IMG/VR virus record: IMGVR_UViG_3300030101_001006
Coordinates: 6,282 to 28,090 of that record
Length of the DNA: 21,809 bases
Reading direction: 5' to 3' (one strand)
DNA from: a virus
Below the pieces are notes generated by a model. That model did no database searches. It was given only the letters and a program-made list of their open reading frames with translations, and was not told the origin of the DNA. Of the stretch, positions 8,337 through 21,809 are shown one piece after another (the stretch's first letter is position 1; each line of letters opens with the position of its first letter). Both the position numbers and the translations under genes were made by a program.

Positions 8337-8342
8337 CTCCTA
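8337..8342 (-). promoter_or_regulatory. ribosome binding site overlapping the upstream stop codon
   Basis: Read on the - strand the bases are TAGGAG: the TAG ends the 1668-residue gene and the AGGAG is a near-ideal Shine-Dalgarno seven bases before the ATG of the Met-rich gene. This decides the start of that gene and suggests reinitiation after the giant gene. Confidence 0.7.
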
Positions 8343-11300
8343 GTTTTGAGGTTGCCCAAACAATGCTTGAGCATCTGTTTCTGGTGCTGGATCGGTTCGT
8401 GGTATTACGAGGTCTTGGAATGCGAAGCCCAAGTCTGCCTTAGATCGGATGGTTCTGCTATCGTCTGTGGTTGTAGGTCCACCCATAGTGAATTCGTAGC
8501 CAGTGCCTGTGCGTACTCTGAGTGGCTCCGGCTGATGCGTAGCGTTGTAGCGTTCGAGTCCGATGGATAGCATCTGGAACATCTGCTTTTCCTTTTCGAA
8601 CGGTAGAGGTTTTCCTGTGCGTACCATCTCCATAAACAACTCACCAACTTTAGGATTCTGGATAATTTGCGTCAGCATGGACATATTTCTGTTACGCATC
8701 TGTTGGAGGACAGCCTCTGTGCCAACATACCTGAAGCTTACGACGCCACGATTGATTGCGTAGAAGCGGCTTATGTAGCTTTCTACGGAAAACGAACGAG
8801 GTATTCCTGTAAACCTTATACGATTATCAAGCTTGGTCTGTTCCTCTGCCATGAAAGCAAGGACCGACTTGTATGTCTTGTATGCTTCTGGACCCACAGC
8901 GTCCTCTACTGCCCTAGCTACGGCAGGATCGTTGATTCCTAGAAGAGAGTTTAGCTGGTTCATGTCTACGTCGTAGTCAGGGGTCAGTCTCTCTGCACCA
9001 CCCACCATAGTCTTGCCGGTGTTTGCGGTGAATGTTCCAGTTGCCTTGAAGGCTCTATTGGTGATGGCCTCACTGACAACAGAACGCATTACTTCTGATA
9101 TCTCGTCATCATTTAGATTGCCAACAGTCTTGAGATGATTCTTGAGAAGGGCTATCCTCTCCGGACCTCCTCCGACCAATACGTCTACAGCCTTTACAGC
9201 GTCGAGATTTTCAGGACTGTATCTGCGTAGGAATTCTATGGAGGTCTGTACGCCGCTCTTGACTACGCGAAGCTGCCTGCTAACCTCGCTTGCATTTTCT
9301 TTCGCTGCCTTTTTCATCGTGGACTGTGCGTTTGCAAAGGCAATCTCACCGACTGTGTCTTCAGAGAATTCCATCATGTGCCGGAATATTTTGTTGGTGT
9401 TCATAAGGGCGACGACATTGCCGTCTGCGTCTATGCCAGTGAACAACTGTTCGTACTTCGAAGACATGTCCTCGAACTGTTTGAAAGTAAGATCACCGCG
9501 TTCCAAAGAGTCCATGATCCACTGCCTATACGTAGCAGCTATAGACTCCTTAACAAAACGTCCCTCTGGTGTTCGTAGGTCAATCCTCCGTGTACCGTCC
9601 GGCTGAAGAGTTCCAGCAGCCTCAACAAGAAATGCAAAATCTTTATCTGCAGTCGCCTTGTCCTTTTTTGCCCACGTAGCCACGTCTAGCCACGTAGGGG
9701 GTGGATTATTTCCGTATGAAATACCGCCGGGTTTATCCGCAGTTCTTCCAGTAAATACTCGCGGCTCTCCCTTGAATGTATTTGTACCCAGCCAAGTTGA
9801 TACAAGAGGGTTGCCTCCCTCAAAACGATTCATGTGTTGACTCCAGCCCTGATCAGCAACACGCAGGGCTTGACGAACAGGCATGTCCGCTTGTGTACCG
9901 TCCGGCAGAGTTACTGTTGCTATCAAGTCACCAGCATTTACACGATTGCCTTGAGAATCGGTTACGGTAAAGTTGCCCAGAGCCTCATCTGCTGTCATCC
10001 GGAGACGTGAGTAGTCAGCTTGTGCAGAGTTCTTGTTTGCTTTGCCCGCTCTAAACGACAGTTGTCCCAAGCTTTCGCGGGCTTCTTTGACTTGCAAAAA
10101 GTCTAGGGGAAATACTTCCATGTCTATCCCCTTTGCAGCATTTTCGTCACGCATAAATTTGACGACTGCAAGAGCCTCAGGTACGCCTGTTGCCAGTCGA
10201 TTTCCTGCACGAGCCTTAGCGGCTTCAATAATGACCTCTACCTCGACGCCTCGCTTTGCAGCAATAATAGAAAGTGAGTTTTCCGCTGCACCTGTAAGTG
10301 TTCCCAAAAGCTTGCTTATGCTCCCCGTGTTCACGGAGTCCGGATTCATAGCCTTTAGAAGGTCTATGTTTTCGTCCTTGCCCATGACGGAGAATATGTC
10401 ATCCAAAAGCTTGCCGCCGTCTGATGTGGCAATCCCCATGACTCGTTGACCATCCGGCCCCGGCATACGGAATATCTGTCCGTTGAGACTCTTGTAGGGC
10501 AGAGAGGCGTTCTGATAGGATGTAGAGCGAAGGTTTTCCATGCCCAGTGCAAACAAATCAGATGGCTTTCTGTATAGAGGAAGTACACCATCTTCTGCAG
10601 CATCAGGGAAAGCATCGGGAGTGATTCTTTTAACATCTTGCCCTGTAGGCAACGCCCTGCGAACAACAGTCTTTAATCTAGATGTGATCTCGTCGGAGAA
10701 AGCGTCAGACGTTGCTTCAATCTGTTGACGCACCTCTACACCCCTTGCCGGATCGATGAATTGAACGCCATCTCCCTTGAGACGAGCAATTACTGCAGGC
10801 ATGTTTTCGAATGAGTCAGGCGACATGTGATGAGCAAGGCCCGTTTGATCACCCCGAATTGTGGCGAGTGCTATTTCTACTCCGTTATTGTTTACAAACT
10901 CCATGTCAGCTTCTAGTTGGCGTATCTTGTTTTCGGAGTTTTCAAGAGCAGCCTGTACGGTATCATACAGCTTTTTGACTCCAGAACCTTCCTCACGTGC
11001 TTGGGGATTTGATCCCAGCCTTTCAAACAGAGAACGAAGTTCTGCTGTGAGTTGTCCCTGCGCGTTCTTAATGTTTTGTAATTCGCGAGACGCTAGATCA
11101 AATCCTGCCGTTCCCGGAGCATCTAAATCCATACGCATACCCTCTTCAAGAGTTTGCAGGATGGATAGCTTAAATATGTTTGAGGCTGACCTGTTAGTGA
11201 GTTCTGCTGGGACACCCGCTCGTATCAGTTCTGCAGACAACTCGTCAAAGTATCTTACACGAGCCATAACACCGGCAACAAAGTCGGGGTCCATGTTTTC

Positions 11301-13346
11301 CATGTTCTTGCCCAGACGAACAGCGTTAAGCAGGTCGAGGGGGGATGTAAAAGAACTCGTACCTACTTCATTGGCTCCTCGCATTAGGTCCTTCACAAAC
11401 ACAGCGGCAGTTCCGGCCTTGCTTCCGCCATACAAGCCCAGACCTGCTAGGCTACCAAACAATTCCCAGAGCATCATGTCGCCGCCGTAGTTTTGACCTA
11501 CGATGTTTCCAGCGGCACCACCCAGTATGACCGTAGCGTCAAGCTTTGTCGATGTACGCATAAACGCAGGAACTTCAGACAAAGCCACAATGCTGCGTAG
11601 TTCGTTTTTGCTTCGATCAATCTGCCGTGTAAGTTCGTCCAGTCTTGCTTGATCAGCAGGAGATGTGGTCTTGCCACTATTTTTAATCCGTTCCCGAATT
11701 GCGGCACGTTCTTGAATCTTGCCCCTGCGATAGGCTATAAATTTGCTCACCTCTTCCCTCTTGCCGACTGCCAGAGCAGCATCTTCAAGCTGGAAGCCCG
11801 CCTTGAGGGCACTGGTGGTTCTGAATCCATTGATGAATGATATAGGTTTGGCGGCAACCCCTGCAGCAAAAGCGATAGGCTTCCCCGCTAGGGGGACATA
11901 CATAAGCATGTCATGTATGACATCACTCTTGACTGTGAAGGTTGTGTTTGTAAAGGGAAGGTCAACTTCTTGTTTACGCTTTGCCTTGTAGCGCAGCAGG
12001 ATGTCATCCGGCGTAGCGTCTGGAAACTTCTTTCGCATGTCGTTTGCAAACAACTGGAAACGCTGCATCTCTTTTGCACCACGCAAAGATTGTGCAAGTC
12101 GTGTAATTCCCAGAGTGAACTTGGCCTCAACCGCAATGTTTGCCAGTGCAGTCGTGGGACTAGAGTAGAAGCGCGAAAGCTGTTCAGCCTGATAGTTTGT
12201 GATGTCGAGGCCCAGAGCATCGTAATGATCTTGGATCGTATCAGGGAGACGAGGCAGCCACCTGTCATGCAGGGCTTCTCTTCCCTGCGGTGTACTCAGG
12301 TTGTAGCCGCCAATGCCCTCGAAGTTAAGCTGGGCATTCCACAGTGTAAGTGCCTCGAAGCCCTCACCTAGCACCCACGTTCCCATGTCCACACCAAAGC
12401 GAAGGGCTTCCGTAGGAGAAGCGGCAAGGATAGACTTATCGCCGTATGATATACTGGACCCCAGAAGAGTGTCTTCCAGTTGCGGTATGACTTGCTTCAA
12501 GGACAGACGGTGCTTGAGGACGCCCGCAATGTTGCGCTCACTCATGCCACGCTGACGAAAGTAGCGAACAAACTTGTTGGCGAACAACGCATCCAGAGTC
12601 TGTTTGTCGTGTCCTGCAACAAACAGGTCAGCACTACCATCTTCCCGCTCAATGAACGGAACATTCATTTTTAGGTACTTTTCGATTTCTTCTGGCTGAC
12701 GGGTCCACTGCTCTGTGATTGCTTGGTACGGAATCTCTTCCCTGTCAACTAGAGTGCGTCCATCGCTTGTCTTGAGTTCAAACTCTAGGGTTTGAGCCTT
12801 GTTCTCCTCAAGCAGGCGGACTCGCTCTTCGAAGGATATCGGACCAAGTACAGCTAGGGAAAACTTTTTTAGGGGATACTTACCATCTGCTCCCGGCTGG
12901 GCGTTCGTATCTTTTGCAAGGAACGAAGTGGCACCCATGACCATATTCTTGTAAGCTTCTTCGTCTACACCAGCGGCAGCGAATGCTTCCTTAGATGTGA
13001 CGATGAAATCGTCGGGTTCGAACTTCGACTTGTCTAGGACGTTTTCCCGCATACTTGTAAAGCCGGTGCCCAGTATAGATGGCTCAATCGTCTTTGTAGA
13101 TTCGCCAGTCAGGACAGGTGACACAGGGGGCTTATCGCCCAGAGAGAAGGGAAGGTAGCCCAAGCCAGTCATTTGACCCGGAAGCCTATACTCCGAAGTC
13201 TTGAGATCAGGACGAGGTGCAGGTTCGGCGGGAGTCCCTGCCGATGTAAACTCTTCTAGTGCAGCAGCTTTAGCCGCTTCATCCTCCGGCTCATCGGCGG
13301 GGGGCTGCGGTAGAAAAGTGTTTGCGCCTTGTGGTTCTTCTGACAT
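8340..13346 (-). CDS. giant internal virion / DNA-ejection-like protein, 1668 residues
   Basis: The longest gene of the window. AAGGA lies about eight bases before the ATG and only one base separates it from the previous stop. The product begins with a Pro/Ala/Glu-rich disordered leader (about residues 1-50), then a mostly helical, charged body. Two stretches with hydrophobic, Gly/Ala-rich character lie near residues 474-500 (LMYVPLAGKPIAFAAGVAA) and 600-640 (VILGGAAGNIVG, then LFGSLAGLGLYGG). The C-terminal part (SYISRFYAINRGVVSFRYV, then a helix ending in a MVRTGKPL-like segment) resembles the end of large internal proteins of other marine podoviruses as I remember them. Size, position after other virion genes and apolar segments fit a T7 gp16-like ejection protein, but I see no transglycosylase motif. 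The role is inferred. Confidence 0.75.
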   Translation of the reverse strand: MSEEPQGANTFLPQPPADEPEDEAAKAAALEEFTSAGTPAEPAPRPDLKTSEYRLPGQMTGLGYLPFSLGDKPPVSPVLTGESTKTIEPSILGTGFTSMRENVLDKSKFEPDDFIVTSKEAFAAAGVDEEAYKNMVMGATSFLAKDTNAQPGADGKYPLKKFSLAVLGPISFEERVRLLEENKAQTLEFELKTSDGRTLVDREEIPYQAITEQWTRQPEEIEKYLKMNVPFIEREDGSADLFVAGHDKQTLDALFANKFVRYFRQRGMSERNIAGVLKHRLSLKQVIPQLEDTLLGSSISYGDKSILAASPTEALRFGVDMGTWVLGEGFEALTLWNAQLNFEGIGGYNLSTPQGREALHDRWLPRLPDTIQDHYDALGLDITNYQAEQLSRFYSSPTTALANIAVEAKFTLGITRLAQSLRGAKEMQRFQLFANDMRKKFPDATPDDILLRYKAKRKQEVDLPFTNTTFTVKSDVIHDMLMYVPLAGKPIAFAAGVAAKPISFINGFRTTSALKAGFQLEDAALAVGKREEVSKFIAYRRGKIQERAAIRERIKNSGKTTSPADQARLDELTRQIDRSKNELRSIVALSEVPAFMRTSTKLDATVILGGAAGNIVGQNYGGDMMLWELFGSLAGLGLYGGSKAGTAAVFVKDLMRGANEVGTSSFTSPLDLLNAVRLGKNMENMDPDFVAGVMARVRYFDELSAELIRAGVPAELTNRSASNIFKLSILQTLEEGMRMDLDAPGTAGFDLASRELQNIKNAQGQLTAELRSLFERLGSNPQAREEGSGVKKLYDTVQAALENSENKIRQLEADMEFVNNNGVEIALATIRGDQTGLAHHMSPDSFENMPAVIARLKGDGVQFIDPARGVEVRQQIEATSDAFSDEITSRLKTVVRRALPTGQDVKRITPDAFPDAAEDGVLPLYRKPSDLFALGMENLRSTSYQNASLPYKSLNGQIFRMPGPDGQRVMGIATSDGGKLLDDIFSVMGKDENIDLLKAMNPDSVNTGSISKLLGTLTGAAENSLSIIAAKRGVEVEVIIEAAKARAGNRLATGVPEALAVVKFMRDENAAKGIDMEVFPLDFLQVKEARESLGQLSFRAGKANKNSAQADYSRLRMTADEALGNFTVTDSQGNRVNAGDLIATVTLPDGTQADMPVRQALRVADQGWSQHMNRFEGGNPLVSTWLGTNTFKGEPRVFTGRTADKPGGISYGNNPPPTWLDVATWAKKDKATADKDFAFLVEAAGTLQPDGTRRIDLRTPEGRFVKESIAATYRQWIMDSLERGDLTFKQFEDMSSKYEQLFTGIDADGNVVALMNTNKIFRHMMEFSEDTVGEIAFANAQSTMKKAAKENASEVSRQLRVVKSGVQTSIEFLRRYSPENLDAVKAVDVLVGGGPERIALLKNHLKTVGNLNDDEISEVMRSVVSEAITNRAFKATGTFTANTGKTMVGGAERLTPDYDVDMNQLNSLLGINDPAVARAVEDAVGPEAYKTYKSVLAFMAEEQTKLDNRIRFTGIPRSFSVESYISRFYAINRGVVSFRYVGTEAVLQQMRNRNMSMLTQIIQNPKVGELFMEMVRTGKPLPFEKEKQMFQMLSIGLERYNATHQPEPLRVRTGTGYEFTMGGPTTTDDSRTIRSKADLGFAFQDLVIPRTDPAPETDAQALFGQPQN

Positions 13347-13347
13347 G

Positions 13348-16300
13348 CTAGGTTCCTTGAAGTCGCTTGCGGGTAGTCGCTAATAATTCAGGAGGGATTT
13401 TGTCGATACTTTCAAACTTCCCATTAGGGTTGTCTTTTGCATCATACGGTCTGTTATTTCTACGCATGTTGAGACTGTCAAAAATAACTTGATCGTCTAC
13501 TTTGACGCCCTCTGGCCCTGCTCCACGAATCCTAGCCGCAATCGATCCTGCGTTGACTGCACGATGATACCCGCGTGGATCATTGTTGACTGCAGACAGT
13601 GCCTTTACGAAGTAGTAGGCTGCAGCTTCTTGGGGATTCTGCGACATCTGATAGTTCATGTCTGTAGCAATGTCCTGCGCGATAAGCTTGATCTCTTCAA
13701 GAACTGCAGTTTGAGATTGCGGCGTAGCTGTAAACTTTTGACGCAGAGCCTTCAGGATGATGGCAACGTCTTGGTCAGAAATCGTACGTCCACCCGTGCC
13801 ACCCTGCATCGTAGCTGACAGTTCATAGGCAAGCGATACAATGTAGAGTTGACGACTGGCATACAGACGCTTAACTTCGTCGTCCTTTATACCTGCAGCT
13901 TCTGCGGCAATATCGTTGATTATGCCTTCGATCTCTTGTCTAGCGAGTTTTGCCTCTGGCGAGTTGTCAGGTGGCAAGGCTTCGGGATTTGTTTCAAGGT
14001 GCCTTTCGTAGATGCTATTTACGTAATCATCCAGATTGCCCGTAATTTCACGTGCAAACGCTTCCGCATCTCCCATGTTAAGAGCAGCTTTTGCTCTAGT
14101 AAGAGCCTCATTACCTAAGTAAAATAGTCCATCCACAGTCAGTTCGATATCTCCGACAGCTACAGAGCCTCTGTATCCACCCTGTCCATTATTCATATCA
14201 GGATCAAACAAAGTGTTGATCATCTTGTTAGACAAATCGATAACACGATAGGCACTGTTTTGTTTGCCTACAAGTGACTGAAACTGTTGATCAGTGACCC
14301 TAGTAGAAAACTCACCAATGCCGTTACGCATTGCTGCCGCCTTGAGGTCTGGCGGAATGAACGAAGTTCCGTTCATGGGATCACCGACAATGCCGCCAAT
14401 CAGGGGAGTTACAGCAGTTACGAGGTCAGACAGACTCTCCCCGGAACCAATGTACTCCCTTGAAAAGTATTGGAAGTCGGCAGACTTGGTGGCTGATCCA
14501 TTTGCGGCATCAACAAAAGCTGTGAACATAGTCTTGTTGCCAGCACCCGCAAGCTTCTTAGAACTCATGTTAATCCATGCGTCTAGGATAGGCTGCGATC
14601 TCTCGAATGCAACTACGCCATCGACCATCACAGGCTGACCGTTTCGATCATACTTTTTATTCATAAGAGAGATGATGTCGAGGTTAGTGCGATTCTGTAC
14701 TCCATCGTTTACAGCAAGGAAGATAGGATTCAGAGTATTGCTAACAAAGCTTGCATACTTTGCGGGAATGTTTCCGCCCACCACTGTAGTGGATGACCCA
14801 GACTCCACAGGATTTTCGATAGCGTTGTCTTCGTCTATAGTCGCTTCGTTTGTGCTGGTTACGGCAACTACAGGAACGTCACTAGAGGCCCCAGAGTTAG
14901 CCAAGCGATCACTAACACTAAGCACTGTGTCCTGCACTTGTGTGGTTTCAATCCCAACCAGATATTCCCGCATACCCGGAACAGCAAATATTTGCGGGTA
15001 TACGCTCTTTACGTGAGCGGCTAGACTCTTGTTAAGGAAGAGGCTTTGTCCTGTTTGTTCTTTGCTTTGTACATCAAGCATATTCAAATGACTGACTACG
15101 AGAGGACCAAACGAGTTGACGTATTCCGCTGCTTGTCCCTCCTCAGCGAGTTGCTTCAGGTTGTCAGCATTGAGAGTCCTGTTCATTCGCGCCAGTTGAA
15201 CGCCCATGTCGAGTTCTGAAGGCGCACCCAGATGCACGTCTGTTCCCTTGATCTTCATGGGCACGTTCATGGACGCGGCTATCTTGGCTTCCCCTAGAAG
15301 TGTAGATTCTGAACCCGTTACGCTCACTTCGCCTGTCGTGGGAGAAACGGTTCCTTTTCTACTGGATGTCATAGAGTCTAGCTGATCTTCCGTGGCATCT
15401 TCTATCGGCACATTCGTAAAGTCGGGACCAGAAATAAGTTCTACTTCACGGCTCTCAACTGCACCATCAAGAGAGACAAAGCCACTGCTGTCTCGCTTAC
15501 CTATGCCTGCATATTCAAATCCGGCTACACCCTTAAACGTATTTTCCAATGCAGCCTTCGTAGGTGCAGTTACTTCCACACGCCTACCATTCGCATCAGT
15601 TATGTAGCCGACTGCTACGCGGGTTTCCCCATATTTTATGCTTGTGGTAACTGTCTTTGTTATTTCACCGTCTACGGTTGTAGCTTCCTTATTTACAACT
15701 GTAATTGCAGAAGGGGAAATGCCTCTCTCCCGTGCAATTACGGCAATATCCGTAGGGTTTTGATCTGTTAGAACAGTATCGTCTGGAAGTACGAGATCAA
15801 CAACACCCTTCGTAACTTCCACGCCCGGAGGGCTGTAGCTGCTTTTCAGTGCCTTGTCTATTATCTCTTGGGTAAACCTATCACGCGTGATAGAAAATCT
15901 GTCAAAGGCAATGTCGTCCCTACTTAGACCGCGTTTAGCCAACTCAGATGTAAATGAGTCGTCTGTTAGATTTGGCACGGTTTCTGTGCCGCCACCCGGT
16001 TTAGGGAAGTACGCGGTGATTGTTTCAGACTTCAGAGAATCAACAGGTCTACGTATACCCGTAAATTCACTTACCGTTTCTTCACCACCGGTTTTTTCTC
16101 CCGAAGCAGTTACAGTAAAAGATACTGTTTCGATTTTGTTACCGGTCTCTCGTGCAACAGGCGCAACTGTCGTCAGCGTACCTTGCACAATGTTGTTGTC
16201 GGCATCGACGGTGCGGTACTCCTGTTTGGTCCTGTAGCCACGAATAACGGAAATGTTTTCAGGGCTGTAGATGGTGGGACCATTTTTGCGGTTTGTATGG

Positions 16301-16860
16301 CCTATGGCTGGTCCTGTAATTTTTGACGAGACGCCCGTACCACTCAAGTCACGCTGCATCAGGGGCGGCAGGCTTGCATTCTCTTGTAGAAGAATTTGTT
16401 TAATTTCTTTTGCTGTGCGCGGTGTTTCACGGAAATTGAACAGAGGAATGTTAGGATCGGGTGTAAAATCAGAATTTAGGTTAAATTTGTTACCGTCTGA
16501 TCCCGGATTGTAACCCAGAGCAGTAGCAAGCTGTGTCCACTCCGGTCCCGGAGATTTCGTCATCTCTGGACCGAATGATGTGGTGTACTCGATGTTGCCA
16601 TTGCCGTCGCCCCACATGGCGGTGCGTACGCCAAGCGCACGTAGTTGATCCAGAGCCTTGCGGTCTGCCGCTGCTGCAGCTACTGCTATATCTTTCTGGC
16701 CTATGGAACTCTGCTTTGCCGCCTCTATGTCTATCGTGTCCTGCTTTTCTTGCGCCTTTGCAGCAGCCTCTGCCAGTTGTTTAGCAGCAGCAGCCTCTTT
16801 ATCTTTTTTACTACGGTATCCGCTGGCAACAAACAGTCCCAGTTCCAACAAACCACTCAT
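13348..16860 (-). CDS. large internal virion protein, 1170 residues
   Basis: Starts at 16860 with GAGGTAGAG just upstream and abuts the 1668-residue gene with one base between. It opens with a short apolar helix (LLELGLFVASGY) and a Lys/Ala/Gln-rich helix typical of coiled coil (about residues 18-75). Residues about 200-475 are rich in Thr, Val and Gly with alternating strands, and contain what looks like repeated modules (a Pro-containing strand, a helix, RGxSxxxI, a strand). The rest is mainly helical. No enzymatic motif is recognised. With the 1668- and 440-residue proteins it probably makes up the internal core or ejected proteins, as T7 gp14-gp16 do. That role is inferred from size, order and the apolar N-terminus. 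It could instead be an external structural protein, given its beta-rich centre. Confidence 0.75.
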   Translation of the reverse strand: MSGLLELGLFVASGYRSKKDKEAAAAKQLAEAAAKAQEKQDTIDIEAAKQSSIGQKDIAVAAAAADRKALDQLRALGVRTAMWGDGNGNIEYTTSFGPEMTKSPGPEWTQLATALGYNPGSDGNKFNLNSDFTPDPNIPLFNFRETPRTAKEIKQILLQENASLPPLMQRDLSGTGVSSKITGPAIGHTNRKNGPTIYSPENISVIRGYRTKQEYRTVDADNNIVQGTLTTVAPVARETGNKIETVSFTVTASGEKTGGEETVSEFTGIRRPVDSLKSETITAYFPKPGGGTETVPNLTDDSFTSELAKRGLSRDDIAFDRFSITRDRFTQEIIDKALKSSYSPPGVEVTKGVVDLVLPDDTVLTDQNPTDIAVIARERGISPSAITVVNKEATTVDGEITKTVTTSIKYGETRVAVGYITDANGRRVEVTAPTKAALENTFKGVAGFEYAGIGKRDSSGFVSLDGAVESREVELISGPDFTNVPIEDATEDQLDSMTSSRKGTVSPTTGEVSVTGSESTLLGEAKIAASMNVPMKIKGTDVHLGAPSELDMGVQLARMNRTLNADNLKQLAEEGQAAEYVNSFGPLVVSHLNMLDVQSKEQTGQSLFLNKSLAAHVKSVYPQIFAVPGMREYLVGIETTQVQDTVLSVSDRLANSGASSDVPVVAVTSTNEATIDEDNAIENPVESGSSTTVVGGNIPAKYASFVSNTLNPIFLAVNDGVQNRTNLDIISLMNKKYDRNGQPVMVDGVVAFERSQPILDAWINMSSKKLAGAGNKTMFTAFVDAANGSATKSADFQYFSREYIGSGESLSDLVTAVTPLIGGIVGDPMNGTSFIPPDLKAAAMRNGIGEFSTRVTDQQFQSLVGKQNSAYRVIDLSNKMINTLFDPDMNNGQGGYRGSVAVGDIELTVDGLFYLGNEALTRAKAALNMGDAEAFAREITGNLDDYVNSIYERHLETNPEALPPDNSPEAKLARQEIEGIINDIAAEAAGIKDDEVKRLYASRQLYIVSLAYELSATMQGGTGGRTISDQDVAIILKALRQKFTATPQSQTAVLEEIKLIAQDIATDMNYQMSQNPQEAAAYYFVKALSAVNNDPRGYHRAVNAGSIAARIRGAGPEGVKVDDQVIFDSLNMRRNNRPYDAKDNPNGKFESIDKIPPELLATTRKRLQGT

Positions 16861-16861
16861 G

Positions 16862-17407
16862 CTACTCTACCTCACCTTCAGGCGCGTTTAAAAACGAAGC
16901 AGGGGCTTCTGCTTGAGGATATACAACTCGTACCGACGCCTTCTTCTCTGCAGCCATACGTATATCTTCGTTTATTTTCTCATTCATAGCTTTGTACAGT
17001 TCCGGATTGCGGTCCTTTACAACGTTGAAGAAAGTCGCATCCTCGACTTCACCCTCAGATACCTCCGGATCAACAAACATTTGTGGCTCGAAACCAGCCT
17101 GCAAAGCCATGTCAACCAGCGCAATACCCAGCGCAGGCTTCATAAGTTCAGCAACGTCTGGGGTGACTGCTCCCGCCATGAACCCCTTGAAGGCAAGCTG
17201 TTCTACGATCTCTTCGACAGTGATACCGGCCAGCATCAGTTTGAGCATGTCGTCACGAGCAGGCCCATTCGACATCATCTCTAGCGCGTGATCGATAGCG
17301 TCATTCGGATTCGGAAACTGTGGCGGCTGCTCCCACTTCCATTTGCCGGGTGCGTCTGTAAGAGAGTTGCCCGGAGGAACGGCTAGGGCTGTGATTTTGT
17401 CCATCAT
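16862..17407 (-). CDS. hypothetical virion-associated protein, 181 residues
   Basis: Begins MMDK with the first ATG at 17407 overlapping the previous stop as ATGA and AAAGGA about ten bases upstream. It opens with a Pro/Trp-rich segment (ALAVPPGNSL, GKWKWEQPPQFPNP) and then helices, one with DMLKLMLAGITVEEIVEQLA and one with DVAELMKPALGIALVDMALQ, and ends in an acidic tail. I recall PPG...GKW.WE-like starts in virion gene clusters of other marine phages but know no function. One base separates it from the 1170-residue gene. A structural or chaperone role is inferred from the neighbours only. Confidence 0.75.
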   Translation of the reverse strand: MMDKITALAVPPGNSLTDAPGKWKWEQPPQFPNPNDAIDHALEMMSNGPARDDMLKLMLAGITVEEIVEQLAFKGFMAGAVTPDVAELMKPALGIALVDMALQAGFEPQMFVDPEVSEGEVEDATFFNVVKDRNPELYKAMNEKINEDIRMAAEKKASVRVVYPQAEAPASFLNAPEGEVE

Positions 17408-18018
17408 GCGCTTGTCAATCCTTTATACTGACGCCGTTTTGCGCTTGTAGTTTGTGCGAGTCCTGCAGTCGATACAGGTGAAGCTGTAGGTAATCTGGAA
17501 GCGGCAGGCAAACCCATCATCCGAACTTGTTTTGCAAGATATTGGCGCATTGCATCAGTCTGCAGAGCAGAAGAAACTTGCGTTCCGTTGCCAATCGGAA
17601 TCCTGCCAATCTGTCCCGGCTGGAAATTAGTGTCAGTCCGAATTCCGGTTGCTGTTATCTTGCCGGGGGTAATCGCTTGATCAAAACGTTGTGCCGCACT
17701 TAGACTCTGCACTGCCCCTATAGCTGCCTCTGCATCACTAGACTGGCCTATGCCCAAGAAGCTGCCGGTTTCCGTAATTGCTTTGCCTAGTGTAGACTGT
17801 CCGAACGAGGTGTTTTGAAAGGGTGTTATATTGAACTTGTTAAATACCTTTCCGGCAAAAGTATCATCAGTGTATGATGCACCTACGTAATCTCCTGCAC
17901 CGCCGTAGCCACCTAAACTTTGCTCTCCAAAAAGGTACCGACTGCCGAAATATCCTGTAGCAGCTAGTGCCGCTATCTTTAAGGTTTTGCCACCTACAAG
18001 CTTTGACAACCAACTCAT
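17404..18018 (-). CDS. virion-associated protein with N-terminal hydrophobic helix, 204 residues
   Basis: GGAG about eight bases before the ATG at 18018, and three bases after the stop of the 440-residue gene. The N-terminus has a basic start and an apolar stretch (TLKIAALAATGYFGSRYLFG), which could be a membrane-active helix; no signal-peptidase site is evident. The rest is Gly/Ser/Thr/Ala-rich, low in charge and probably extended, ending in a basic tail (SAKRRQYKGLTSA). I recognise no family. In podoviruses a small protein with such a helix among the internal virion genes may be an ejected pore component (compare T7 gp14), but this is inference. Confidence 0.75.
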   Translation of the reverse strand: MSWLSKLVGGKTLKIAALAATGYFGSRYLFGEQSLGGYGGAGDYVGASYTDDTFAGKVFNKFNITPFQNTSFGQSTLGKAITETGSFLGIGQSSDAEAAIGAVQSLSAAQRFDQAITPGKITATGIRTDTNFQPGQIGRIPIGNGTQVSSALQTDAMRQYLAKQVRMMGLPAASRLPTASPVSTAGLAQTTSAKRRQYKGLTSA

Positions 18019-18021
18019 CGC

Positions 18022-19344
18022 TTATCTCCAGATTTTATCGATTATTTCGTGCTTTAGGAAGTCGTCATACTTTTTATCGTATGCTGCCTCATTCGCAGCG
18101 ATAGCCGCAGCCTGCATGGCGGCATTGTGTGCGCGATCTTTTGCGTTCTCTGAAATCTTCATAGTCCACGCAGCCTTGTCGCGATAACGCTGCCAGAGAG
18201 CGTTAAGAGCATTTTGCTGAATACCCAGAAGGTTCAGAGCGTTCTGCCTGTTTGCTTCGTTCTGTGCTGCAGTGTTCCGTGTGTTTACTGTACGACGCCA
18301 CACGGCGTTGCTTTGATCGATCTCAAGCTGCATGTTAGCGTTAAACTGATCGGCTGCTGTTTCCATCTGTGCATTGAACTGTGCGATTGCAACCTTCTGA
18401 TTCGAGTTAAACTGTTTTACAGCGATATCGCGGTTGATGTTTGATGCCTCAATAGATGCACCCATCTCTGCAAAAAACTGATTTATTTCGTTTTCAGACT
18501 TAGCGTTAAACTGCTTGGCCGCATTGTCTGCGGCTTGATCAGACAGGAGTGTCTGCAGTTTAGCCTGATATGTAAGGGTATTGGATTGCTGCTCATTCGT
18601 TACGTTTTGCATATCCATAGACAGAAATGCTTTGGCGTTATTTACTGCAGCCTGTTGGCGGTTGTTGAGATTTGCCATATCCATCTGCAGGACAGCGGCG
18701 GCGTTTTGCAGAGCGGCCTGCTGTTCATTGTTCAGGTTCTGTAGCTGAATCGTGGCGTACTTTTGTGCATCCTGTGCAGCAATCGGTATGCCCGACTCCA
18801 TCATAGCCTGCATCGTCGCTGCTGCAGCCATAGAGGACGAACCCAAGCCACGAGACTGCATAACAGCAGTGACCTTGCGAACGGCAGGAGCGGCCCACGC
18901 AGGTGGAGGACCCCCCTCTTCAATGCCCTTGAACAACTCTGCCAGTTGATAGCGAGTGGTTGCGCGAGGGTCGAGTTCCTGAGTGGCGGCTTCGGCAAGG
19001 GCTTCTTTGGATACGACACCCTGTGCCGCAGTCATAATTGACCCTTCTGACAGTTGCCCCTTCGCTGCTTTTGCTTTGCCTACATCGTCTGCTTTTGTAG
19101 AAACGTAGGATGCAGCATCAAATTCTTTAGGCTTTCCTTGATCCGTAGATACTATAGCGTCAGGCGTTTTTACTTTAGTGGGAGCATCGATTTTCTTATC
19201 AGCAGTGGTCAGGAGTTCATCAGTTTGAACTTCTTGATCTTCAGACTCTATCTTAGTGCCTTCGGGCATTTCAGTCGCAGTGGACTGCTTTTCCATAGCT
19301 TTGACGGCAGCTTTATCTTTTTCTGAAATATTCTCGTTGGCCAT
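18022..19344 (-). CDS. virion protein with 22- and 11-residue helical repeats, 440 residues
   Basis: The N-terminal 75 or so residues are charged and disordered (MANENISEKDKAAVKAMEKQ onward). A short Pro/Ala region follows (GGPPPAWAAPAVRKV), then a long Gln/Asn/Ala-rich helical part. Residues 202-267 form three 22-residue repeats (QNLNNEQQ, ANLNNRQQ, QNVTNEQQ), and residues 277-375 form nine consecutive 11-residue repeats with QFN near each start (KQFNAKSENEI, AQFNAQMETAA, DQFNANMQLEI). The 11-residue period predicts a long straight or right-handed helical bundle rather than a heptad coiled coil. Placed upstream of the other large virion proteins, it is probably a structural or ejected protein. 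No enzyme motif is seen. The ATG at 19344 is two bases after the previous stop; its Shine-Dalgarno (GGGAA) is weak, so it may be coupled. Confidence 0.82.
   Translation of the reverse strand: MANENISEKDKAAVKAMEKQSTATEMPEGTKIESEDQEVQTDELLTTADKKIDAPTKVKTPDAIVSTDQGKPKEFDAASYVSTKADDVGKAKAAKGQLSEGSIMTAAQGVVSKEALAEAATQELDPRATTRYQLAELFKGIEEGGPPPAWAAPAVRKVTAVMQSRGLGSSSMAAAATMQAMMESGIPIAAQDAQKYATIQLQNLNNEQQAALQNAAAVLQMDMANLNNRQQAAVNNAKAFLSMDMQNVTNEQQSNTLTYQAKLQTLLSDQAADNAAKQFNAKSENEINQFFAEMGASIEASNINRDIAVKQFNSNQKVAIAQFNAQMETAADQFNANMQLEIDQSNAVWRRTVNTRNTAAQNEANRQNALNLLGIQQNALNALWQRYRDKAAWTMKISENAKDRAHNAAMQAAAIAANEAAYDKKYDDFLKHEIIDKIWR
18220..18741 (-). repeat. in-frame 66-bp and 33-bp coding repeats (22- and 11-residue) in the 440-residue virion protein
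   Basis: Three 22-residue units (residues 202-223, 224-245, 246-267), a nine-residue link, then nine 11-residue units (277-375). The first two 22-mers end in QMDM and SMDM; most hendecads begin with x-Q-F-N or x-x-x-N and close with I, V or A. Identity is at protein level; the DNA copies have diverged, so this is an old repeat, not a recent expansion. Confidence 0.85.
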
Positions 19345-19799: not shown

Positions 19800-21596
19800 C
19801 TATTCGGCTTCAAGTGCTGCAACTTTCGTTTCCAGCGTTTCAATGCGGGTCATTGCTTCTTGCAGGGCTTTGACAGCTTTCATGTAGAGGATGCTGTATT
19901 TTAAAGCCTTAGTCGTAGTGCCTAAGTCATTGTTGTCTTCGTCTACGTCAGGTGTCTCAATGACAAGTCCTGACATCCCGGCTGTTTCGACTTCCTGTGC
20001 AACAAGGCCAAGACGCCACAAAGCATCGCTGTCGCCTTTATTGGCAACATCCTCTTTCATCTTGTATTTGCGGACGATTAGCGCCTTGATGTCATCCCAC
20101 TGTGAAGAAGCATCAGCAATCTGTTCTTTTACTTTCTGGTCGGAAATTGCGCCATAACTGTTGTCGTGGTTCTGAACATCGCCATCGTTTAAGATACGCA
20201 TCCTTGTTGCAGCGCCATCTCTACACTCAAAGAAATTTTTGTTGCCGTTGTCGTCTGAATTGTTCAGGAAACGAACCAGCAAACCATTTGGGCCTGTTGA
20301 TGCTTTGTTTTCAATGATAGCCCCATAGGCGTTAGAAGTATTCCCGTGAAACTGCCAATCACCACTTGAACGAAAATACGCACGGGCATTGCCATCGCCA
20401 TCTGACAGCACGATGTTGTTGTCGGATGTGCGGATGTCTAGACTGTCTTGATTGCCGTTATAGCTGCCGATGATGGTGTTCTTTGAGCCAGTGGTCACTG
20501 TGCTACCACATGAACGACCTAGAAAAGCATTGTAGGTGCCTTCGGTCATCGCACCAGCGGCGTTGTAGCCGATAACAGTGTTTTGACTTCCAGTTGTTAT
20601 AGCATCGCCAGCTTCCCCCCCAACAGCCACGTTTTCCGTGCCAGTGGTGTTTGATTTTAATGCCCGATAACCTATGCCCGTGTTGTTGCTTGCCGTAGTA
20701 TTTGCCTTCAATGCCTCAAAGCCTACCGCAACATGACTAGACCCTGTAGTGTTTGTCGTGAGTGATGAGGTGCCAACAGCAGTGCTTTGATTTCCGGTAG
20801 TGTTTGCAGTTAATGCGGCATATCCAAAAGCACTGCTTTGGTCGCCAGTAGTGTTAGCGTCAAGGGATTCATACCCGACTGCCGTTAGCTTGGTTCCAGT
20901 GGTATTTGTTAATAACGCAGAGTGGCCCACTGCAACATTGTCAGATGCAGTAGTGTTTGCGCCAAGTGCGTTGACGCCGATTGCTATGTTGGTTGTGCCG
21001 GATGTGTTTGCATCAAGTGCGCCTTTTCCAACGGCCACGTTGCTTCCGCCAGTGGTGTTAAGGAGAAGAGCATCACCACCCACCGCCGTATTATTTGCAC
21101 CCGTAGTAGTATCACGCAATGCACGATATCCGATGCCAGTGTTTTCTACCGCTGTAGTATTAGATTTTACAGCATGGCGGCCGACTGCTGTAATTCTGCC
21201 CGTAGTGTTTGCGCCACCAGCGTCGATGCCCACTGCTACCGATTCTGCACCAGTAGTATTTGCATCTAATGCGCCAAAGCCGATAGCCACGTTGCTTTCG
21301 CCAGTGGTGTTAAGAACAAGAGCATTGTAGCCAACCGCAGTATTGCTGTTTGCGGAAGTGTTTGACCCAAGTGCATTACGTCCGACTGCTGTATTGTTGG
21401 CACCGCCTTCGTTATCAGACAGCGCATTGTTACCAATCGCAGTGTTAGCCCCACCGCTCAGACTACCGTCATCAAGTGCCTGATTACCCAGTGCGACGTT
21501 CTCTGTGCCTGTCGGAAAGTTGCCGTCCAGCTTGATTGAACCGCCGTCTATAGAAAGCGTCTTATGTTGGTCTGCTAAATCTCTTGCGCGTGTCAT
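19800..21596 (-). CDS. tail fibre / spike with 17-residue repeats and C-terminal Peptidase_S74 chaperone domain
   Basis: Receptor-binding fibre candidate of 598 residues. After a short N-terminus (MTRARDLADQHKTLS) come about 21 tandem repeats of about 17 residues (consensus N-x-A-V-G-Y-x-A-L-x-x-N-T-T-G), residues about 31-388, which should fold as a trimeric beta-structure, loosely like YadA-type heads. A linker follows, then the S74 intramolecular chaperone from S485 (AISDQKVKEQI, related to the usual SDxRLKxxI) to a long C-terminal coiled coil (LQEAMTRIETLETKVAALEAE). Such domains help the trimer fold and cut themselves off. I chose ATG 21596 because it overlaps the previous stop as ATGA with GAGGAG 11 bases upstream; a GTG at 21608 falls inside that Shine-Dalgarno. 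Confidence 0.9.
   Translation of the reverse strand: MTRARDLADQHKTLSIDGGSIKLDGNFPTGTENVALGNQALDDGSLSGGANTAIGNNALSDNEGGANNTAVGRNALGSNTSANSNTAVGYNALVLNTTGESNVAIGFGALDANTTGAESVAVGIDAGGANTTGRITAVGRHAVKSNTTAVENTGIGYRALRDTTTGANNTAVGGDALLLNTTGGSNVAVGKGALDANTSGTTNIAIGVNALGANTTASDNVAVGHSALLTNTTGTKLTAVGYESLDANTTGDQSSAFGYAALTANTTGNQSTAVGTSSLTTNTTGSSHVAVGFEALKANTTASNNTGIGYRALKSNTTGTENVAVGGEAGDAITTGSQNTVIGYNAAGAMTEGTYNAFLGRSCGSTVTTGSKNTIIGSYNGNQDSLDIRTSDNNIVLSDGDGNARAYFRSSGDWQFHGNTSNAYGAIIENKASTGPNGLLVRFLNNSDDNGNKNFFECRDGAATRMRILNDGDVQNHDNSYGAISDQKVKEQIADASSQWDDIKALIVRKYKMKEDVANKGDSDALWRLGLVAQEVETAGMSGLVIETPDVDEDNNDLGTTTKALKYSILYMKAVKALQEAMTRIETLETKVAALEAE
21036..21073 (-). repeat. copy A of a 38-bp near-identical direct repeat within the fibre array
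   Basis: These 38 bases differ from copy B, exactly 252 bp away, at only three positions (two in the codon after GTTAAG and one at a third codon position). 252 bp is five repeat units less one codon, so recombination between them would keep the frame. Confidence 0.8.
21288..21325 (-). repeat. copy B of the 38-bp near-identical direct repeat within the fibre array
   Basis: Partner of the copy at 21036-21073. The flanks are also similar (for example TTTGCATC...TGCGCC on one side), which makes this the closest pair that I could see in the array. Confidence 0.8.
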
Positions 21597-21809
21597 CGTA
21601 TCAACCACTCCTCTACATCACTGGATATGTCACGCAGTTTAATCCACCTGTCGCCAGTAGGCTGACCTTTACGCATACGCAACTTACCCATCATGCCAAC
21701 AGCATCCCACTCCTTGCGTTCTTCTCTGGGGATATAGGTAACAGATGGGTCAAAACTACTGCTTTCTTTCGGCCTTGTCTGATTTGATGTGACCACTGCA
21801 TCGTCTGGG
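21593..21809 (-). CDS. C-terminal end of a fibre-like protein with Peptidase_G2-type self-cleaving domain (cut by window edge)
   Basis: Reads in from the right edge; about 71 residues are visible. SFDPSVTYIPREERKEWDAV, then GMMGKLRMRKGQPTG, then RWIKLRDISSDVEEWLIR match, as I know it, the end of the Peptidase_G2 / IMC autoproteolytic domain found on phage appendage proteins: PSYDPS, a YxPREER helix, EWDAVGLxGKxR. This domain directs trimerisation and cuts itself off. Its start and N-terminal domains are outside the window. The stop TGA overlaps the ATG of the S74 fibre by four bases, so two fibre-type genes are translationally coupled. The GTG at 21796 is probably an internal Val codon, not a start. 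Confidence 0.8.
   Translation of the reverse strand, partial: PDDAVVTSNQTRPKESSSFDPSVTYIPREERKEWDAVGMMGKLRMRKGQPTGDRWIKLRDISSDVEEWLIR

What the first reader, a model, noticed from the sequence alone, without database searches (positions are those of the whole stretch)
18220..18741. Nine tandem hendecads after three 22-residue repeats in a virion protein
The unit length of exactly 11 holds for 99 residues (277-375) and 22 for the 66 before. Eleven-residue periodicity gives long straight or right-handed helical bundles or amphipathic membrane-lying helices (compare apolipoproteins). In a phage protein next to ejection proteins it could form a long tube or line a membrane during DNA entry. I know of no description of this architecture in podoviral ejection proteins.
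Basis: partly seen in the sequence, partly recalled or inferred. Interest (0 to 1): 0.62.

Follow-up and report, generated by a model that had tools for sequence, protein, structure and literature searches.

The report
Eleven-residue helix array in phage protein
A virion-cassette protein of abundant marine short-tailed phages carries a long run of 11-residue helical repeats, and across 113 relatives the run changes length only by whole repeats, which suggests a long helical tube or fibre, probably one that helps the phage's DNA cross the cell envelope.

Summary
The repeats are real. The protein (18022-19344, minus strand, 440 aa) shows a lag-22 signal at residues 200-276 (z 7.0) and lag-11 at 277-375 (z 6.8), in one continuous register of 16 units. 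It belongs to a large unnamed family in HMO-2011-type podoviruses and relatives (27 phage records, over 570 viral-contig matches). The decisive new result: between two conserved anchors, spacing differs from the window's by an exact multiple of 11 in 113 of 113 homologues (-22 to +176), while lengths outside the array follow no such rule. Unit number varies; phase does not. AlphaFold predicts long helices at moderate confidence. The gene opens a conserved five-gene cassette ending in two giant proteins, resembling T7/P22 ejection operons. Relatives carry an S74 domain shared with P22-like ejection proteins, LysM, or adjacent wall hydrolases. I found no homology to T7 gp14 or P22 gp7. The closest architectures are siphophage tape-measure repeats and the phiX174 H tube. 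Best reading: an ejected, tube-forming pilot protein whose unit number sets length. Virion location, ejection and the tube are inferred; a trimeric fibre is not excluded.

The parts
18022..19344 (-). Hendecad-array protein, 440 aa (P0001), first gene of the conserved cassette
   Evidence: homologues in 27 phage records and at least 573 viral-contig stretches
18910..19344 (-). N-terminal region (residues 1-145), Ala/Thr/Pro/Gln-rich, variable length in relatives; AlphaFold pLDDT mostly under 50 at 77-112
18748..18909 (-). Conserved anchor, residues 146-199: short helix, RGLGSSS loop, start of the long helix (AlphaFold H152-164, H171-278)
18550..18747 (-). Three 22-residue repeats, residues 200-265 (six 11-residue units)
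   Evidence: lag 22, z 7.0
18517..18549 (-). Transition unit, residues 266-276, conserved LLSDQAADNA motif; array length varies independently on each side of it
18220..18516 (-). Nine 11-residue units, residues 277-375, consensus x-Q-F-N-A-x-x-x-x-x-I
   Evidence: lag 11, z 6.8; position profile over 113 homologues
18025..18219 (-). C-terminal helical domain, residues 376-440 (conserved WQxYRDxAxW); replaced or extended by S74 or other domains in relatives
17404..18018 (-). Second cassette gene, 204 aa; 60-320 aa and variable in relatives (a Hydrolase_2 cell wall hydrolase in CRP-603, LysM with a sub-threshold GH19 match in CRP-207)
16862..17407 (-). Third cassette gene, 181 aa (about 160-209 aa in relatives), detected in 22 phage records that also carry the hendecad protein
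13348..16860 (-). Fourth cassette gene, 1170 aa (about 300-1200 aa in relatives), gp15-like by position and size only
8340..13346 (-). Fifth cassette gene, 1668 aa (about 1000-1790 aa in relatives), gp16-like by position and size only

Best explanation
The protein is the first of a set of internal virion proteins that are expelled at infection. Its Asn/Gln-rich 11-residue array folds as a long straight alpha-helix. Several copies pack side by side into a tube that extends the short tail across the outer membrane and periplasm so that DNA can pass, working like the phiX174 H tube and like a tape-measure protein after ejection. Each unit would add about 16.5 angstroms (11 x 1.5), so 16 units give about 264 angstroms; relatives with 14 to 32 units would make about 230-530 angstroms. 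Shown: the repeats, strict phase conservation, predicted helicity, cassette position and domain fusions. Inferred: presence in the virion, ejection, oligomeric state, the tube, and that unit number sets length.
For: Spacing between anchors outside and at the end of the array differs by exact multiples of 11 in 113/113 unique homologues (11 length classes), while N-terminal and C-tail lengths spread over all residues mod 11; a regex test on unique motifs gave 71/71. Both sub-arrays change independently by whole units, including compensating -22/+22 pairs in 15 sequences. AlphaFold predicts helices 171-278, 285-373 and 377-438 in the window and a similar layout in a divergent relative. The cassette (hendecad, small, ~180 aa, 300-1200 aa, 1000-1790 aa) is conserved in almost all relatives and resembles the T7/P22 order gp14/gp7, gp15/gp20, gp16 (PMC8954989). 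Relatives carry a C-terminal S74 domain shared with DNA ejection proteins, including H6/1 gp17, whose N-terminus matches phrog_598 'DNA ejection'; N-terminal LysM in CRP-235; adjacent wall hydrolases. Asn/Gln content is 31% in the array against 26% in the phiX174 H coiled-coil domain, where 18 of 23 lumen positions are N, Q or R. Short 11-residue arrays also occur in some P22-gp7-like ejection proteins (lag 11 z 5.0 in ct76p945, 4.1 in H6/1 gp17).
Against: No detectable profile homology to T7 gp14 or P22 gp7 (for gp7 no better than a reversed control). No PDB match by sequence or fold. No proteomic or ejection data found for any relative. S74 is also typical of trimeric tail fibres, and an S74 fibre gene lies nearby (19800-21608). 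AlphaFold confidence is only moderate, pTM is 0.34, and no oligomer could be modelled. The two-face hydrophobicity pattern does not separate a tube from a trimeric coiled coil: the trimeric P22 needle gp26 gives it too.
Confidence: 0.45

Rival explanations
1. It is a trimeric fibre, whisker or needle: the hendecads form a three-stranded straight coiled-coil shaft outside the capsid, and S74 is the trimerising C-terminal chaperone in those relatives that have it. Whole-unit changes set shaft length.
For: S74 fusion in CRP-3, CRP-212 and CRP-235 homologues; a nearby S74 tail fibre gene; undecad coiled coils are known in the trimeric adhesin NadA (PMC6191539); P22 gp26, a trimeric needle, shows a similar two-face hydrophobicity spectrum.
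Against: S74 is present in only a few relatives; in P22-like phages the same S74 type sits on ejection proteins. The gene is fixed at the head of the giant-protein cassette, while the fibre genes upstream vary. A helix this rich in Asn would be unusual for a stable trimer core (inference).
Confidence: 0.22
2. It is a tape-measure-like or scaffold filament: an extended helix that organises the internal core during assembly through regularly spaced aromatic residues (F every 11), and is ejected afterwards without itself forming a tube.
For: Aromatic residue (F, W or Y) every 11 residues with runs of 6-7 in 38 of 116 homologues (shuffled runs never exceeded 4); tape-measure proteins show the same F/W-x(10) pattern and whole-unit changes.
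Against: These phages have short tails, so there is no long tail to measure; no tail-assembly chaperone was identified; sequence homology to tape-measure proteins was not tested.
Confidence: 0.18
3. It is an amphipathic, membrane-lying helix of the apolipoprotein kind that coats or lines a membrane during entry.
For: 11- and 22-residue units resemble exchangeable apolipoproteins (general knowledge).
Against: Almost no single-face signal (3/11 power 0.29 in the window, family median 0.33) and 31% Asn/Gln.
Confidence: 0.05
4. The array is low-complexity drift from slippage, with no structural role.
For: Simple composition (N, Q and A make up nearly half of residues).
Against: No DNA-level tandem repeat; the 11-residue phase is kept in 113/113 relatives at identities down to about 23-40%.
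Confidence: 0.02

Closest known systems
Siphophage tape-measure proteins with 11-residue repeats (TP901-1, p2, Staphylococcus and Clostridium phages; PMC3271669, PMC5099701)
   Same: Helical protein of the virion, aromatic marker every 11 residues, repeat number changes by whole units, linked to DNA passage into the cell
   Different: Long-tailed phages, inside a tail tube, much longer proteins with predicted transmembrane regions; no sequence relationship shown
phiX174 H DNA-pilot protein (PMC7354561)
   Same: Hendecads within a long coiled-coil helix, amide-rich; tube 170 angstroms long
   Different: Three hendecads then heptads; decamer solved; ssDNA microvirus with no such cassette; no sequence homology seen in the PDB search
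T7 gp14 / P22 gp7 first ejection proteins (PMC8954989, PMC11784390)
   Same: First gene of an operon ending in a mid-sized and a giant internal protein; in T7, two antiparallel helices per chain making an outer-membrane channel; P22-like members can carry S74 and short 11-residue arrays
   Different: About 200 aa; T7 gp14 and P22 gp7 have no 11-residue periodicity; no profile homology
Trimeric fibres with S74 (Peptidase_S74, PF13884) or undecad stalks such as NadA
   Same: S74 in some relatives; 11-residue coiled-coil periodicity
   Different: Window protein lacks S74; genomic place differs from the fibre genes

Membership tests
T7 gp14 / P22 gp7 ejection proteins | Sequence or profile similarity to gp14 (phrog_805) or gp7 (phrog_598) | tested here: not met
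   PHROG scan of the window protein: 0 families; hhalign without signal, for gp7 no better than a reversed control
T7 gp14 / P22 gp7 ejection proteins | Operon place: first gene before gp15- and gp16-like genes | tested here: met
   Order and sizes conserved in almost all relatives; extra small genes lie between, and the two giant proteins are gp15/gp16-like by position and size only
T7 gp14 / P22 gp7 ejection proteins | Ejected at infection and forms an outer-membrane pore | not testable with these tools
   Needs virion proteomics, fractionation or bilayer recording
Siphophage tape-measure protein repeats | Aromatic residue every 11 residues, whole-unit length changes | tested here: met
   the window itself has a run of three only (F312, F323, F334), relatives up to seven
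Siphophage tape-measure protein repeats | Length proportional to a long tail | tested here: not met
phiX174 H DNA-pilot protein | Hendecad/heptad helix forming a decameric amide-lined tube | tested here: inconclusive
   11-residue repeats and amide richness met; oligomer and lumen not testable; no PDB sequence match
Canonical heptad coiled coil | 7-residue hydrophobic periodicity | tested here: not met
   2/7 power 0.59 over 200-375; lag 7 not significant
S74 trimeric fibre | C-terminal intramolecular chaperone (PF13884) | tested here: not met
   Absent from the window protein; seen only in CRP-3, CRP-212 and CRP-235 among the homologues scanned
Apolipoprotein-like amphipathic helix | One broad hydrophobic face at 11/3 periodicity | tested here: not met
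   3/11 power 0.29 in the window, family median 0.33

The most novel reading that the evidence does not exclude
HMO-2011-type podoviruses build a trans-envelope DNA conduit from a hendecad tube of a separate protein family, and evolution tunes conduit length in 16.5-angstrom steps to the host envelope, so the number of units would be a readable ruler of the envelope distance to be crossed.
Probability: 0.2. Interest if true: 0.8.

Novelty: new variant of a known kind. Interest (0 to 1): 0.5.

Why it matters
HMO-2011-type phages are among the most abundant marine phages, and I found no description of their ejection apparatus. A protein family whose length changes only in exact 11-residue steps is a natural experiment on how a helical conduit or fibre is sized. 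It links podoviral ejection cassettes to tape-measure proteins and the phiX174 pilot by architecture, and it gives a clear prediction: removing 11 residues should be tolerated, removing 5 or 6 should not.

Tried and rejected
Homology to T7 gp14 and P22 gp7 by hhalign: a first run used a wrong global-alignment option, repeated locally and with a broader gp7 set and a reversed control; no signal. A hydrophobicity spectrum meant to tell a tube (two faces) from a trimer (one face) was rejected as a discriminator because P22 gp26, a trimeric needle, also shows the two-face signal. The strong 4/11 and 5/11 components and alternating hydrophobics raised the idea of a beta-solenoid; set aside because both AlphaFold models are helical and the composition favours helix, but not excluded by experiment. 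PDB fold search gave only chance matches to F-BAR domains; BFVD matches with E below 0.001 were unnamed or weakly named phage proteins. PDB sequence searches of the two giant neighbours gave nothing useful. The C-terminal domain of HMO-2011 gp25 was found only in HMO-2011 itself. A remembered link to T4-like cyanophage proteins was tested by tblastn and not found for the array; only the S74 part matched cyanophage fibres.

Full report
Observation. The protein is encoded on the minus strand at 18022-19344 (440 aa). Self-comparison by BLOSUM62 against 2,000 shuffles gives lag 22 with z 7.0 for residues 200-276 and lag 11 with z 6.8 for 277-375, with harmonics at 22, 33 and 44; no shuffle reached these peaks, while residues 1-190 show nothing. 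The three 22-residue copies are in register at 200-265, then one 11-residue unit (266-276), then nine units (277-375). All sixteen units share one register. There is no heptad signal and no DNA-level tandem repeat.

Family. No Pfam or PHROG family describes the protein. tblastn finds it in 27 phage records: Puniceispirillum phage HMO-2011, Roseobacter CRP phages, pelagiphages HTVC033P/103P/104P/115P, Sinorhizobium phiM6, Rhizobium RHph phages, Vibrio CHOED, Aeromonas MQM1 and 1233, Pseudoalteromonas Slicky01 and an environmental genome. The window is therefore from an HMO-2011-type podovirus or close kin (class II ribonucleotide reductase and a family A DNA polymerase by sequence, inference; synteny).

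Key result. I placed two anchors by profile: residues 146-208 (before the main array) and 334-405 (reaching well beyond it). In 113 of 113 unique homologues the distance between them differs from the window's by an exact multiple of 11: 0 (60 sequences), +66 (34), and -22, -11, +11, +22, +44, +55, +88, +154, +176. Unique-motif regular expressions gave the same for 71 of 71. As a control, the lengths of the N-terminal part (80 classes) and the C-terminal tail (30 classes) are spread over all eleven residues mod 11. Changes occur independently before and after the conserved LLSDQAADNA motif, again in whole units, and 15 sequences have -22 before and +22 after it. Many of these sequences share ancestry, so the count of independent events is smaller than 113; the ten non-zero total classes alone would have a chance of about 11^-10 if classes were independent and phase-free (inference).

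Chemistry and structure. Over 113 homologues the unit consensus in the second zone is (N/D)-Q-F-N-A-x-x-x-x-x-(I/V). Position 4 is Asn or Gln in 74-80% of units in both zones, and the array is about 31% Asn plus Gln. In the window protein the richest 99 residues reach 0.34 Asn plus Gln, against at most 0.19 in any other protein checked. AlphaFold with 62 sequences predicts helices at 171-278, 285-373 and 377-438, with block pLDDT of 48-82 (70-82 through most of 290-380) and pTM 0.34; a divergent relative gives a similar layout at lower confidence. Hydrophobic positions fall on two opposite sides of an 11/3 helix rather than one. I hoped this would separate a tube from a trimer, but the P22 needle gp26 control shows the same signal, so I do not use it that way. 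The lack of a single face does argue against an apolipoprotein-like helix.

Context. The gene is first in a cassette found in almost all relatives: hendecad protein, a variable 60-320 aa protein, a 160-209 aa protein, a 300-1200 aa protein and a 1000-1790 aa protein. This resembles T7 gp14-gp15-gp16 and P22 gp7-gp20-gp16 in order and rough size (PMC8954989), with extra small genes. The 181-aa neighbour was detected in 22 phage records, all of which also carry the hendecad protein. Domain fusions point to envelope passage: CRP-235 adds an N-terminal LysM (PF01476, E 8.7e-11) and a C-terminal S74; CRP-603 and CRP-207 have a cell wall hydrolase or a LysM protein as the next gene. The S74 type matches DNA ejection proteins of Salmonella 7-11, Cronobacter and Vibrio podoviruses. 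In Pseudoalteromonas H6/1 gp17 the N-terminus matches the P22 gp7 family phrog_598 (E 3.7e-16) and the C-terminus is S74. Some of these gp7-like proteins carry short 11-residue arrays (ct76p945 lag 11 z 5.0; H6/1 gp17 z 4.1; CBW1004C z 3.6), but P22 gp7 and T7 gp14 do not.

Membership. Profile comparison with gp14 and gp7 families finds nothing, for gp7 no better than a reversed alignment. So it may work like a first ejection protein, but I do not file it as one. Tape-measure proteins share the 11-residue aromatic-marked repeats and whole-unit changes (PMC3271669, PMC5099701), but these phages are short-tailed. The phiX174 H protein has three hendecads in a decameric tube with 18 of 23 lumen positions N, Q or R (PMC7354561).

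Mechanism. The most likely reading (0.45) is an ejected pilot protein whose array forms a helical tube for DNA passage, each unit adding about 16.5 angstroms. Shown: repeats, phase, predicted helix, cassette, fusions. Inferred: virion location, ejection, tube and length control. A trimeric fibre (0.22) and a tape-measure-like filament (0.18) remain open.

Novelty. 11-residue helical arrays and hendecad DNA tubes are known; a strictly phase-locked, length-variable one heading a podoviral giant-protein cassette was not found in the literature searched, so I call it a new variant of a known kind.

Noticed in passing
L039:9739-10188 (Pelagibacter phage HTVC115P): The gene directly after the hendecad protein is an RTX-toxin-type lysine acyltransferase homologue (HlyC, PF02794, E 1e-15); possibly it acylates a virion protein. 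Not found in the other fetched loci.
   Followed up: partly
L089:6489-9524: The hendecad homologue carries N-terminal RTX calcium-binding repeats (PF00353, E 3.2e-15), and L114's homologue has sub-threshold EF-hand matches.
   Followed up: partly
L046:1342-3873 (Roseobacter phage CRP-235): One protein combines LysM, the hendecad array and S74.
   Followed up: yes
window 19800-21608, minus strand: 602-aa fibre with an S74 C-terminus and many repeats of the form NTTGxxNVAxGxxAL, by sequence like trimeric adhesin head repeats.
   Followed up: no
window 17404-18018, minus strand: 204-aa protein with a lag-6 self-similarity signal (z 4.2) and no family match.
   Followed up: no
L233:1219-2118 (ct76p945) and L132:1649-2725 (H6/1 gp17): P22-gp7-like ejection proteins with short 11-residue arrays (for example GQNVANQLGAY/GQNMANQLGAA), suggesting 11-residue arrays recur in podoviral ejection proteins.
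   Followed up: partly
L002:9697-11811 (HTVC033P): Two 2OG-Fe(II) oxygenases and a putative ferrochelatase annotated shortly before the hendecad gene.
   Followed up: no
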